A DNA stretch of 64,000 bases from Candidatus Peregrinibacteria bacterium CG10_big_fil_rev_8_21_14_0_10_55_24 (GCA_002772745.1 PFDV01000001.1:1-64000), one strand, 5' to 3'. Shown: positions 29,606-35,396, counted from the stretch's first letter. Numbers and translations are program-made. The notes: a model not told the origin generated them from the letters alone.

Positions 29606-29726
29606 CAGGTGCAGAAGGTTTGGAAGGTGCTGGAAGCGGAAAGCTATGACTCCAAACCAACAAGAGCGCACACCTCCTGCACCTTGCGCACCTTCCAGAT
29701 CTCCTTGTCCTGCCAAACCTCTCTCT
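29606..29726. repeat. 9-nt-phased inverted element with conserved core (locus R2)
   Basis: Left TGCAGAAGG|TTTGGAAGG|TGCTGGAAG; core 29634-29673; right CCTCCTGCA|CCTTGCGCA|CCTTCCAGA|TCTCCTTGT|CCTGCCAAA. Confidence 0.75.
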
Positions 29727-29775
29727 TCGTTATTCTCCAACCACGCGTATTCTGCTATACTACAAGGAAACACAC

Positions 29776-31383
29776 ATGCCTCTCCGTACTGCTGCTCTCT
29801 GGGTTTTCTGCCTTCTCCTCTTCGCGTATGCCTACGCGAGCAACGCCGATACGATTAACCCCAACTCGCGTCAGGCGCTCTTGACAGCAATTGTGACGAA
29901 CGGGAGTTTTGTCATCGACACGTGGCAAGAGAAAACCATCGACAAATCATCGTACGAGGGACACATCTACAGCGACAAAGCGCCGGGGACCGCGCTCCTG
30001 GCATTGCCTGCATACGCCGCCGCTCGCGGTGTGCAGATGGTAACCGGATGGCCGGGAACTGAGCGCGCATGGTTCTTCCTGGGATGGATGACGACCGTGG
30101 GGTCCGTGGGGCTCATCAGCGCCGCAGGTGGTTGTGCGTTCTTCCTGCTCCTTGCAGAGCGTTTGAGCCGCCGTCTCGCGCTCGTCGCCACGCTCGCCGT
30201 GTTCCTGGGTTCTTCCGCATTCGCCTACGCAACGTCGCTCTTCTCGCACGCGGCAACGATCGGTCTCCTCTCCATCGCTCTCTGGGCGGTGGAAGCTGCA
30301 CCTGCGCAAAAGAGCATGCGCGCACCGAGCCGTACTCTCGTCTGGTGCTTCCGCGATGCGCTCTTCCTCGCGCTCGTGAAAACGATGAATGTGGGTACAT
30401 TGCTCCTTATCGGTGCGCACCCATCGCACATCGCACTGCTCTTCGCAGGAGGGACAATCGCAGGTGTGACGTTGCTCATGTGCTGGCATTCGATCGTTCG
30501 CGACGCTTCGACGATATCTACGCGTGATGCCGTTGCCGGTCTCGCGTGCGGATTCGCCATCTGCGGAGAGTACACATCCGCCCTTGCTGCGGGGGTGCTC
30601 CTCCTCTTAATGGTACGAAGAGGATGGCGGCGCTCAGTGCGCATGATTCTTGCCGCCGCGTTCCCCGTCGCACTACTCCTCATCTACAACACAGTCGCTT
30701 TTGGCTCTCCTGTGAGCATCGGGTATGCCCACGTGGAGGGATTCGCTGAGATGCGCGAAGGATTCTTCGGCATTCGTTCTCTCCCCAGTATCAGCACGAT
30801 CAATTTCCTCCTCTTCAGCGAGGCACGAGGACTCCTCTTCTGGACGCCGTTCTTCCTGCTCTCGGTGGGAGGACTTCTCCTCACCTGCAAGCGTTCCCCC
30901 ACGGAGTTCCTCCTCTTCTTCTGCCTCATTACGCTCCACATTGTGCTCATTGCGGGGTACTTCCTCCCCAGCGGAGGCTGGGCGCTGGGACCGCGGCATC
31001 TTGCGGCACTCGTCCCCTTCCTCGGGCTCCTCTGCGCACGAGCACTACCCTCTGCACCTAAGAGCGGAACACTCTTGGCGGTGCTCTCAATCCTCCTCAC
31101 GGGAACGGCGACCTGCATCACGAACATGCCCGACGAGAACGTGCTCTTCCCCCTGCAGGAGATTTACTGGCCTTCGCTCCTCTCCGGACGTTTCGTGGAA
31201 ACACTCAGAAGGTACGCGGGGCTGGACGGCGCTCTGGCGTTGCTCCCGCTGCTCCTCATGCTGATGCCGATGACCGCATGGCTCCTGCTGCAGCTTGGAC
31301 CCGCACCTCGATGGAGAATTCCTGCATTCCCGCGCCTGCACAAGGCAGGTGGCCCGTATCTGGTATCTGGTATTGAGTATTGA
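29776..31383 (+). CDS. Polytopic membrane protein
   Basis: Multiple TM helices; N-terminal periplasmic loop; TATACT at 29756-29761. Confidence 0.6.
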   Translation: MPLRTAALWVFCLLLFAYAYASNADTINPNSRQALLTAIVTNGSFVIDTWQEKTIDKSSYEGHIYSDKAPGTALLALPAYAAARGVQMVTGWPGTERAWFFLGWMTTVGSVGLISAAGGCAFFLLLAERLSRRLALVATLAVFLGSSAFAYATSLFSHAATIGLLSIALWAVEAAPAQKSMRAPSRTLVWCFRDALFLALVKTMNVGTLLLIGAHPSHIALLFAGGTIAGVTLLMCWHSIVRDASTISTRDAVAGLACGFAICGEYTSALAAGVLLLLMVRRGWRRSVRMILAAAFPVALLLIYNTVAFGSPVSIGYAHVEGFAEMREGFFGIRSLPSISTINFLLFSEARGLLFWTPFFLLSVGGLLLTCKRSPTEFLLFFCLITLHIVLIAGYFLPSGGWALGPRHLAALVPFLGLLCARALPSAPKSGTLLAVLSILLTGTATCITNMPDENVLFPLQEIYWPSLLSGRFVETLRRYAGLDGALALLPLLLMLMPMTAWLLLQLGPAPRWRIPAFPRLHKAGGPYLVSGIEY

Positions 31384-31444
31384 GTAGGAAGATTGACTTC
31401 GCGTATTCCCATACGTGATACGTTATACTGAATACTACCCATTC

Positions 31445-31801
31445 ATGATTTCGACATACCGTTTCTCCACAGCATTTATCACCCTCGCGTACGCGCTCGC
31501 GATCTTCGGGCCCGTTCCGAGTTTGTGGAACTCTGAGAATACGGATACGTCTACGCAGTCCAGTACGCGCATCTTCGGGCCCGTTCCCAATCTTCTGGAA
31601 CCCAAGCGCGGAATCTTTGGGCCTGTCCCCAGCGCAGACGACTACTGGAGCCGCCACGGCACAGCGCCCAAACGCTCCGGCAGGAGGCCGTTTGGCACGA
31701 CACCAAATCTCCTGGAGAAGAAGAACCTCTTCGGCACTACTCCGAACCTTTTGGAGGGAGATGCACCGCTCTTCGGGCCGGTGCCGAGCTTGTGGGATTG
31801 A
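31445..31801 (+). CDS. Short secreted FGPVPSL/FGTTPNLLE six-repeat protein
   Basis: Signal peptide MISTYRFSTAFITLAYALA, then six [ILP]FG[PT][VT]P[SN] repeats with synonymous codon variation between copies. Confidence 0.75.
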   Translation: MISTYRFSTAFITLAYALAIFGPVPSLWNSENTDTSTQSSTRIFGPVPNLLEPKRGIFGPVPSADDYWSRHGTAPKRSGRRPFGTTPNLLEKKNLFGTTPNLLEGDAPLFGPVPSLWD

Positions 31802-31995
31802 GGACTCTCGAAAAGCCAACTTCCGCTCCTGGTGGGCTTGCCATCCGTAGCGCAGCGCTTTAGAAAGCAGTGCTGCGGCCACAGTCCAGGAGCTACGGTC
31901 GGCATCCTTCGCTGTGCGAAGGATGGTCGGGGTGCCCTAAAGGACAGCCTCCCAAGCCTTTCGAGCTTCGCCCTATGGGCTCGCTCTCAAGAGCT

Positions 31996-32071
31996 TGGTC
32001 GGGGTGCCGGGACTCGAACCCGGGACCTCAGCGTCCCGAACGCTGCGCGCTACCAACTGCGCTACACCCCG
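31996..32071 (-). tRNA. tRNA-Pro(CGG), CCA encoded
   Basis: Minus strand CGGGGTGTAGCGCAGTTGGTAGCGC...CAGCG-TTCGGGA-CGCTG...GGTTCGAGTCC...CACCCCGACCA. Confidence 0.95.
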
Positions 32072-32119
32072 TCAGGCAATAGGAGAATGACCAATGAGCA
32101 TGTCCATCGCGAGATGGGT

Positions 32120-32146
32120 GCGCCCTGAGCGTAAGTCGAAGGGCGC
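32120..32146. repeat. REP-like inverted repeat GCGCCCTgagcgtaagtcgaAGGGCGC
   Basis: 7-bp perfect inverted repeat with 13-nt spacer. Confidence 0.6.
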
Positions 32147-32224
32147 TACACCCCGCAAGGCAGCGCTATCCTAGCAGAGTCTGTACCTCTACCAAGCGAG
32201 AAGATCAATCCAATGAACAACGCC

Positions 32225-34200: not shown

Positions 34201-34317
34201 CAGAAACGCCTGCATTGCAAAGGGTCACAAAGACCCGACACCACTTCCTCCTCACCCCCGCGTGAGGGCGGGAAAACCGAACCTTGCTTCGTAGAAAGCC
34301 CAGGGTATACTTCGGTT

Positions 34318-34383
34318 GTGAACAGTGCGTACGTCCTCTTCTGCTCCCCCGTGTCTTCCTGCTCTGCAGTGAGGGCGCGGTAG
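34318..34383 (+). CDS. Ser/Cys-rich leader peptide MNSAYVLFCSPVSSCSAVRAR
   Basis: TTGCTT-16-TATACT promoter (34284-34311), then 6 nt, then GTG; followed by antiterminator/terminator pair. Confidence 0.6.
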   Translation: MNSAYVLFCSPVSSCSAVRAR

Positions 34384-34408
34384 TTCGTACGTTCACGTCG
34401 TAAACCGC

Positions 34409-34437
34409 ACCCTCCAAGAACACCCGAGGGTCTTTTT
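34409..34437 (+). terminator. Attenuator-type terminator
   Basis: ACCCTC-loop-GAGGGT-C-TTTTT; competing pairing 34372-81 with 34404-13 (9/10). Confidence 0.65.
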
Positions 34438-34457
34438 ATATATTCCCCATTTCTCCC

Positions 34458-34742
34458 ATGAAAATCCTGCACACACTCGAACCAACGCTCATGCCAGGCA
34501 ACCCCAACGGCCCCCCCGAAGCCCAGAACCCCATAGCCTGGCGCCTGCGAGCGCTCGTCGAAGTTGCGGGCGAACGGTACGTAGGCATCTTTTCCACTCG
34601 CAACGGCAATACGACGCCGCTCCCCGAAGACCTGCGTGAGCTTCTCGCACCACAACCTGCTGATTTGGAGCATCTACCTGCTGCTCCTAGCGCTCTGTCG
34701 GCTTCAGGAGACCCCGAGCCACAACCTGCTCTGACGGCCTAG
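34458..34742 (+). CDS. Hypothetical protein, 94 aa
   Basis: ORF downstream of the attenuator-like leader; no family recognised; convergent overlap with 34687-35211. Confidence 0.45.
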   Translation: MKILHTLEPTLMPGNPNGPPEAQNPIAWRLRALVEVAGERYVGIFSTRNGNTTPLPEDLRELLAPQPADLEHLPAAPSALSASGDPEPQPALTA

Positions 34743-35211
34743 GATTCCCGTCGTCGCTCTCGCGCGTTACCACCACTCTGAGGAGAGAGGAGAGATCCTC
34801 ATCACTCTCAAAGGTGAGCTGGTGACGCGCGTCGCCGAAGTAGTTCGTCAGGTGCCCTGTGGAGAGGAGCTCATCCTCACTCTCCTCCAGCCACACCTCG
34901 TAGAACGACCCGTCGGCCGCTGGCTCGATATTGAGCTGCATCGTGAGCGTGTAGGCGCCATCCTCAAAGAGATAGGCCTGGGCAACGCCGTTTGCCGGCG
35001 TCCCCTCCTCCCCACTCATGGCTCCATATGCAAACCACGTCTCCGTACCGTGCTTTGGATGCACGGCTTTTCCGTCCTGCGGCATGACCATCTGAATTTC
35101 TTCCACCCCTACCGTGTCATCGCGCTGGCACGCGAGGAGTAGGAACGGCAACACCATCATCGGGAGTAAAAAGAAGATCGTGCGGCGCATGGAAAAGAGA
35201 GATGAATGCAT
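34687..35211 (-). CDS. Predicted lipoprotein, anti-sigma-K C-terminal-like
   Basis: Lipobox LLLAC; AYLFEDGAYTLTMQLNIEPAADGSFYEVWLEE. Confidence 0.65.
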   Translation of the reverse strand: MHSSLFSMRRTIFFLLPMMVLPFLLLACQRDDTVGVEEIQMVMPQDGKAVHPKHGTETWFAYGAMSGEEGTPANGVAQAYLFEDGAYTLTMQLNIEPAADGSFYEVWLEESEDELLSTGHLTNYFGDARHQLTFESDEDLSSLLRVVVTRESDDGNPRPSEQVVARGLLKPTER

Positions 35212-35279
35212 GGGAAACAAGGGGTGAGGACGGCACAGTATAGCATGGAGAAAGAAAGGACAATGGGTGTTTTTATAGG

Positions 35280-35396
35280 TACAGAAGGTGCGGAAAGTGC
35301 TGAAAGTGGAAAGCTATGGCTCCACACCAATAAGGATGCACACCCTCCGCACCTCCCACCCCTTCCTCACATTCCGCACCTTCCTCACCTGCATTA
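35280..35396. repeat. 9-nt-phased inverted element with conserved core (locus R3)
   Basis: Left TACAGAAGG|TGCGGAAAG|TGCTGAAAG; core 35304-35343; right CCCTCCGCA|CCTCCCACC|CCTTCCTCA|CATTCCGCA|CCTTCCTCA|CCTGCATTA. Confidence 0.8.

What the first reader, a model, noticed from the sequence alone, without database searches (positions are those of the whole stretch)
29606..35396. Two copies share a conserved ~40-nt core between purine and pyrimidine 9-mer arms
29634-29673 (AAGCGGAAAGCTATGACTCCAAACCAACAAGAGCGCACAC) and 35304-35343 (AAGTGGAAAGCTATGGCTCCACACCAATAAGGATGCACAC) align without gaps at 33/40. Each is flanked by TNNGGRAGG-type units on the left and CCTYCCNNA units on the right, giving a hairpin-capable structure. 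Shared core plus arms suggests common descent, perhaps a small mobile or regulatory element.
Basis: seen in the sequence. Interest (0 to 1): 0.78.

Follow-up and report, generated by a model that had tools for sequence, protein, structure and literature searches.

The report
Hairpin DNA element without its gene
The two look-alike DNA stretches are stripped-down copies of a small jumping-element design, two inverted runs of a 7-9-letter motif that in many bacteria and some archaea bracket a gene for a four-helix-bundle ("23S intervening sequence") protein, and finding that design outside ribosomal RNA genes, with clean insertion sites, gives that mysterious protein family a likely context.

Summary
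Observation confirmed. Window 29607-29696 and 35277-35366 align over 90 nt without gaps (79%); the core is 33/40, and similarity drops to chance at both ends. The arms give the answer instead. They belong to a 9-nt-unit family with about 27 loci in this 1.29-Mb genome. On the same contig those arms bracket a PF05635 gene (23S_rRNA_IVP/S23, Avd-like four-helix bundle). This is general: inverted 7-9-nt tandem arrays bracket 63/77 PF05635 genes sampled across bacterial phyla and archaea, against 0/201 shifted controls. On cyanobacterial plasmids such gene-plus-arms units have empty alleles, with 5-bp target duplications at two independent sites (GTAAT, TTCTA). Gene-less armed elements occupy the same sites in sister plasmids. 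In Peribacteria relatives the orthologous spacers are empty or hold unrelated hairpin arrays. Best reading: the window pair are gene-less, MITE-like members of a mobile "armed IVP element" class that includes the 23S rRNA intervening sequences. That IVP drives movement by binding the arms is inferred; the catalyst is unknown.

The parts
29605..29713 (.). ORF-less armed element, copy 1 (between the divergent genes 28883-29590 and 29776-31383)
   Evidence: inverted arms I3; homologous block with copy 2 is 29607-29696
29605..29641 (+). purine arm of copy 1: 9-nt units GGAAGGTNN
   Evidence: array scan score 30.5
29634..29673 (+). 40-nt core of copy 1
   Evidence: 33/40 identical to 35304-35343; 0 expected by chance
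29669..29713 (+). pyrimidine arm of copy 1: 9-nt units NNACCTTCC
   Evidence: array scan score 43.3
35277..35390 (.). ORF-less armed element, copy 2 (in the spacer between the stop of gene 35394-37409(-) and the start of gene 34687-35220(-))
   Evidence: inverted arms I1; hairpin z -4.9; the orthologous spacer is empty in G027, G029 and G021, differently filled in G011 and G052
35277..35311 (+). purine arm of copy 2
   Evidence: array scan score 28.3
35304..35343 (+). 40-nt core of copy 2
35339..35390 (+). pyrimidine arm of copy 2
   Evidence: array scan score 55.3; TRF period 9, 5.6 copies
26786..26947 (.). same 9-nt family, two arms with a short apex (GGTTGTTAAAACC), starting at the stop of gene 26918-27763(-)
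   Evidence: scores 46.3 and 58.3; orthologous spacer empty in G029 and G028, holds a 7-nt hairpin in G011
38721..38756 (+). same family, single pyrimidine arm upstream of gene 38795-39541
   Evidence: score 44.0
40481..40551 (+). same family, single pyrimidine arm filling the groES-groEL spacer (66 nt)
   Evidence: score 74.7; lag-9 p<0.01

Best explanation
The two copies are gene-less (MITE-like) members of a class of compact elements whose ends are inverted tandem arrays of a 7-9-nt unit. The full-length members carry one gene, PF05635 (23S rRNA intervening-sequence protein, S23 / four-helix bundle, Avd-like). SHOWN: the window pair shares one bounded 90-nt block; its arm family also brackets an IVP gene on the same contig; IVP genes in many phyla are bracketed by such arms; gene-plus-arms units insert as discrete units with a 5-bp target duplication; gene-less armed elements occur at the same sites; the window's spacers are empty or differently filled in relatives. 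INFERRED: the IVP ring (a pentamer in the solved homologue) binds the repeated units of the arms, as hairpin RNA or single-stranded DNA, and marks both full and gene-less elements for movement; strand cutting and joining are done by an unidentified host or other enzyme; new copies survive mainly between genes, often directly at a stop codon.
For: Bounded 90-nt block, chance-level flanks. About 27 array loci in the genome. Same arms around PF05635 at G000:C6:155966-156504 (PF05635 E 1.4e-27; solved homologue XCC0516, 2gsc, E 8e-14). Inverted-arm score >=16 at 29/33 IVP loci in the class versus 0/124 shifted windows and about 1% of random positions. Same at 63/77 IVP loci from many phyla versus 0/201 shifted windows, with periods 7 (35), 8 (17), 14 (6), 9 (4). 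Precise 428-bp insertion with GTAAT duplication against empty plasmids whose flanks are 97.8% identical. Second site with TTCTA. Gene-less armed elements at the same sites: Brasilonema at site A, N. punctiforme and ATCC 53789 at site B, F. resistens in the panB spacer that holds an IVP gene in two sister species. Window spacers empty or differently filled in relatives. Published Coxiella 23S IVS: 428 nt, S23 ORF, terminal inverted repeats, heptamer repeats before the ORF (PMC4990558).
Against: No IVP gene lies in the window elements, and their core resembles no part of an IVP element, so descent by internal deletion is not shown. Empty sites with target duplications were seen in cyanobacteria, not at the window loci. 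Within-locus arm pairing is not better than between-locus, so a selected hairpin is not demonstrated. Single-arm arrays in the groES-groEL spacer recur in relatives with unrelated units, which slippage could also produce. IVP has no known catalytic activity. One weak PF05635 hit in this genome (C8:25572, below cut-off) has no arms.
Confidence: 0.66

Rival explanations
1. The arrays are locally grown simple repeats (replication slippage, hairpin-templated copying, spread by recombination), with no transposition; inverted arrays are a by-product and IVP genes merely sit in such spacers.
For: The groES-groEL spacer carries 7- or 9-nt arrays with unrelated units in many relatives. Arrays are often single-armed. 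Arms are only family-level complementary.
Against: The window pair shares a non-repetitive core with sharply bounded homology. One unit family is dispersed over about 27 loci. Whole gene-plus-arms blocks insert with a 5-bp target duplication. Arms bracket IVP genes, not random positions.
Confidence: 0.15
2. They are regulatory hairpins (transcription terminators or mRNA 3'-end stabilisers) kept at gene ends by selection, with turnover of sequence but not of position.
For: Elements sit directly at stop codons and before the next promoter-like box. Orthologous spacers hold hairpins of unrelated sequence in some relatives. Copy 2 folds well.
Against: Several relatives have no hairpin at the same place. 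Copy 1 lies between divergent genes, where no transcript ends. Copy 1 folds poorly. No locus-specific compensation.
Confidence: 0.1
3. REP/BIME-like palindromes moved by a Y1 (HUH, RAYT-type) transposase.
For: One PF01797 protein in this genome (C12:107297-107857). Palindromic, intergenic, multicopy.
Against: Relatives G004 and G027 have arrays but no Y1 match. The 5-bp duplications are not expected from HUH transposition (established knowledge of that family). Coding elements carry IVP, not Y1.
Confidence: 0.05

Closest known systems
23S rRNA intervening sequence (IVS) with S23/IVP ORF (Coxiella, Leptospira; PF05635)
   Same: Size (428 nt in Coxiella), terminal inverted repeats forming a stem around an S23/IVP ORF, heptamer repeats just before the ORF (PMC4990558). 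Coding members of the class found here encode the same family.
   Different: The elements here lie between protein genes, not in rRNA. Both arms are tandem arrays of 7-9-nt units that differ from element to element. The window copies have no ORF.
Cyanobacterial STRR heptamers and TAACTGA repeats (Beggiatoaceae, cyanobacteria, Bacteroidetes; PMC4679880)
   Same: Short-unit (7-nt) degenerate tandem arrays in intergenic DNA, often next to start or stop codons. Nostoc IVP genes on plasmids are bracketed by such heptamers (TAGGGAG, CAGGGAA).
   Different: Described as direct repeats of unknown origin. Here they are the inverted arms of an insertable element; the window family has 9-nt units.
MITEs, e.g. 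BrickBuilt of Porphyromonas gingivalis (PMC4596501)
   Same: Short, non-coding, multicopy, inverted ends, tandem repeats inside.
   Different: No parent transposase with matching ends. The parent candidate encodes only IVP.
Avd of diversity-generating retroelements
   Same: PF05635 resembles Avd (PMC10053308); the solved PF05635 homologue is a ring of five four-helix bundles (2gsc; Lin et al. 2006, cited).
   Different: No TR/VR pair or reverse transcriptase was looked for or seen next to these elements.
REP/BIME with RAYT
   Same: Intergenic palindromes in many copies.
   Different: 7-9-nt tandem units; 5-bp target duplications in the coding relatives; no link to Y1 proteins.

Membership tests
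23S rRNA IVS / S23 element | encodes a PF05635 protein | tested here: not met
   The window copies are 109-114 nt with no such ORF. Met by the same-armed element at G000:C6:156093.
23S rRNA IVS / S23 element | terminal inverted repeats | tested here: met
   I1 79%, I3 77% complementary
23S rRNA IVS / S23 element | located inside an rRNA gene | tested here: not met
   Rfam finds only three tRNAs in the window; neighbours are protein genes
23S rRNA IVS / S23 element | excised from RNA by RNase III | not testable with these tools
   needs RNA
MITE | short, non-coding, dispersed multicopy with inverted ends | tested here: met
   about 27 loci of one arm family; two copies share a core
MITE | target site duplication | tested here: inconclusive
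   No near-identical empty allele exists for the window copies. Met (5 bp) for IVP elements on two plasmid sites.
MITE | ends match those of an autonomous transposase element | tested here: not met
   Matching arms were found only on an IVP element; IVP is not a known transposase
REP/RAYT | co-occurs with a Y1 transposase | tested here: not met
   G004 and G027 have arrays and no PF01797 match; G000 has one
STRR | degenerate tandem heptamers in intergenic DNA | tested here: not met
   Unit is 9 nt in the window pair; 7-nt arrays do occur elsewhere in this genome
Diversity-generating retroelement | reverse transcriptase with TR/VR repeats | not tested
   only the Avd-like protein resemblance is at hand

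The most novel reading that the evidence does not exclude
A distinct, widespread class of prokaryotic mobile elements: no transposase, a single Avd-like ring protein, ends made of a freely changing 7-9-nt tandem unit instead of fixed terminal sequences, 5-bp target duplication, insertion at stop codons, and gene-less offspring moved in trans. It would include the 23S rRNA IVS as special cases and explain the origin of heptamer STRR arrays.
Probability: 0.38. Interest if true: 0.88.

Novelty: new variant of a known kind. Interest (0 to 1): 0.72.

Why it matters
PF05635 (S23/IVP) has been an orphan for decades: found in 23S rRNA inserts, near CRISPR genes and in DGR look-alikes, with no function. 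Heptamer STRR arrays are equally unexplained. The evidence here joins the two and supplies empty sites, target duplications and gene-less derivatives, so mobility, arm binding and the missing catalyst become directly testable in culturable cyanobacteria and flavobacteria. None of the 10 literature searches returned a paper describing this link; the library lacks most subscription papers.

Tried and rejected
Chance similarity: rejected (0 expected). Core as the element's hallmark: no other copy in 96 genomes or by BLAST in 59; the weak third hit at C3:39205 (E 0.07) has no arms. Covariation of arms: within-locus is not better than between-locus. Known RNA family: none. Y1/RAYT origin: not supported. 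Gene-less copies as internal deletions of IVP elements: no sequence support in the core. groES-groEL spacer as a clean empty-site test: failed, since relatives carry other arrays there. Naive ORF calling to measure the intergenic fraction: unusable, because 9-nt arrays keep frames open. First genome-contig scan with the threonine dehydratase found nothing. A first IVP alignment was too diverse to search with. IVP in phages: no match. Sites F and G on plasmids: insertion clear but no readable target duplication.

Full report
CHECK OF THE OBSERVATION. The two cores are where stated and match 33/40. The homologous block is larger than reported: 29607-29696 and 35277-35366, 90 nt, 79%, ungapped, with flanking similarity at chance level on both sides. 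The core pattern is expected 0 times in shuffles. Copy 2 folds better than its shuffles (z -4.9); copy 1 hardly does (z -1.6). The core has no further copy in the genome or in 95 relatives.

THE ARMS ARE THE FAMILY. Scanning for the 9-nt unit found three more arrays in the window: 26786-26947 with two arms and a short apex, 38721-38756 and 40481-40551 with a single arm. There are about 27 loci in the 1.29-Mb genome. Where two arms exist, the purine arm always comes first. The unit is NNACCTTCC with seven near-fixed and two free positions, GC, AA and TG being commonest at NN. Within-locus complementarity does not exceed between-locus complementarity (sum 244 versus 234 expected, p 0.24). So arms pair because both are built from one unit, not because each hairpin is individually maintained.

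THE CODING PARENT CANDIDATE. At G000:C6:155966-156504 the same purine and pyrimidine arms bracket an ORF that is PF05635, 23S_rRNA_IVP, E 1.4e-27. Its solved homologue is XCC0516, 2gsc, a ring of five four-helix bundles by the title of its structure paper (Lin et al. 2006, cited). This genome has four PF05635 matches, and 71 of 96 relatives have some. Two others here have 7-nt arms; the fourth, below cut-off, has none. Over 33 IVP loci of the class, 29 have inverted arms scoring at least 16, against 0 of 124 shifted windows and about 1% of random positions; the flanks show excess periodicity at 7, 14 and 9 nt.

GENERALITY. Of 77 usable PF05635 loci from a scan of 85,488 species genomes (Bacteroidota, Acidobacteria, Proteobacteria, Clostridia, Kiritimatiellaeota, Omnitrophica, CPR, Methanophagales archaea and others), 63 have inverted arms, against 0 of 201 shifted windows. 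Best arm periods are 7 (35), 8 (17), 14 (6), 9 (4), 11 (1). Unit sequences differ freely between elements. In Nostoc plasmids the arms are heptamers such as TAGGGAG and CAGGGAA.

MOBILITY. On conjugative cyanobacterial plasmids, Trichormus variabilis plasmid C and a Scytonema plasmid carry the unit, while plasmids with 97.8% identical flanks lack it. The difference is 428 bp, and the empty GTAAT is present on both sides of the insert. A second site shows TTCTA the same way. Two more sites show the insert without a readable duplication. At site A a Brasilonema plasmid carries a gene-less hairpin with related arms; at site B the alleles are empty, IVP-filled, and gene-less with two other arm types. 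In the Flavobacterium panB spacer, two species carry IVP units and a third a gene-less array. Insertion rather than precise loss is favoured by the duplications and by the number of empty plasmids, but is not proved.

THE WINDOW'S OWN SPACERS. The spacer that holds copy 2 (after the stop of gene 35394-37409) has no array in G027, G029 and G021, a different 9-nt hairpin in G011 and an 8-nt single-arm array in G052. The spacer of 26786-26947 is free of arrays in G029 and G028 and holds a 7-nt hairpin in G011. These genomes are too distant to read target duplications.

POSITION. In the 63 armed IVP elements, 63 neighbouring stop codons lie within about 120 nt of an outer arm end, and roughly two thirds of them within about 12 nt. 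In this genome a random intergenic point lies within 10 nt of a stop in about 6% of cases. The control comes from other genomes, and selection against gene disruption may explain the pattern.

MECHANISM. Shown: class membership by arms, discrete insertion of coding members, gene-less members at the same sites. Inferred: the IVP ring binds several arm units at once; gene-less elements are moved in trans; an unknown enzyme cuts and joins. Not shown: that the window copies have moved recently, or that they descend from IVP elements by loss of the gene.

COMPARISON. The Coxiella IVS is described as a 428-nt selfish element in 23S rRNA with an S23 ORF, a 28-bp terminal inverted repeat and heptamer repeats before the ORF (PMC4990558). 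CPR rRNA inserts also carry IVP (PMC11270868). IVP genes were noted among cas genes (PMC3936711), and two plasmid copies here indeed lie between cas6 and cas4, one between Cmr genes. TAACTGA heptamer arrays were described with no mechanism (PMC4679880). The window pair works like a MITE of an IVS-type element. It is not a member of the rRNA IVS family as defined, because it lacks the ORF and the rRNA location.

VERDICT. A real, bounded, repeated element. Ordinary-looking by itself, it leads to a general and apparently undescribed design of IVP elements. Interest 0.72.

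Noticed in passing
window 31356-31442: A second type of array with 7-nt units (GTATCTG, GTATTGA ... TATACTGAATACTACC), hairpin-capable, straddling the end of gene 29776-31383; the same AGTATNN family recurs on contig C8.
   Followed up: partly
groES-groEL spacer, window 40487-40552 and loci L163-L192: The spacer carries pyrimidine-rich tandem arrays in many genera of the family, mostly period 7, with unrelated units, on the coding strand and without a clear Shine-Dalgarno sequence.
   Followed up: partly
G000:C8:112674-142646 (loci L116-L118): At least eight near-identical 7-nt-unit palindromes (ATGAATGGTGAATT...CATAATTCACCATTCA) a few kb apart; several share flanking sequence too, as if amplified with a gene unit.
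   Followed up: no
L193-L272, outer arm ends: Armed IVP elements abut the stop codon of a neighbouring gene, mostly the co-directional upstream one (46 left versus 17 right).
   Followed up: partly
G000 contigs C6 and C8: Polarity of single-arm arrays follows GC skew: pyrimidine arms on + in C6 (skew about -0.04), purine arms on + in C8 (skew about +0.03).
   Followed up: no
window 26762-26917: The mechanical ORF 25838-26917(-) begins inside the 9-nt array (MQEVWEVGQVRKVRKV...): arrays read as false N-terminal extensions because period 9 keeps the frame open.
   Followed up: no
L058 and L062 (G000:C3:24460-24505, C4:28500-28540): A palindrome CCGACTCCGTCCGcctgcggCGGACTTCGCCGGGC lies directly beside two of the 9-nt arrays, perhaps a different repeat family inserted at the same spot.
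   Followed up: no
L283 (G017:C11), two spacers: G017 carries one shared element of about 90 nt (CGGAAGGGCCACCCCTGG...CCCACCCTTCCT) in both spacers orthologous to the window's arrayed spacers.
   Followed up: no
L292, L291, L300, L313: IVP elements sit inside conserved operons on plasmids: between nrdB and nrdA, between cas6 and cas4 (twice), between Cmr2 and Cmr3.
   Followed up: partly
window 32229-32322: A separate long hairpin (CGTGTCATGCTGAGGAGG / CCTCCTCAGGATGACACG, 94% complementary, 46 nt apart) beside the tRNA at 31999-32071, unrelated to the 9-nt family.
   Followed up: no
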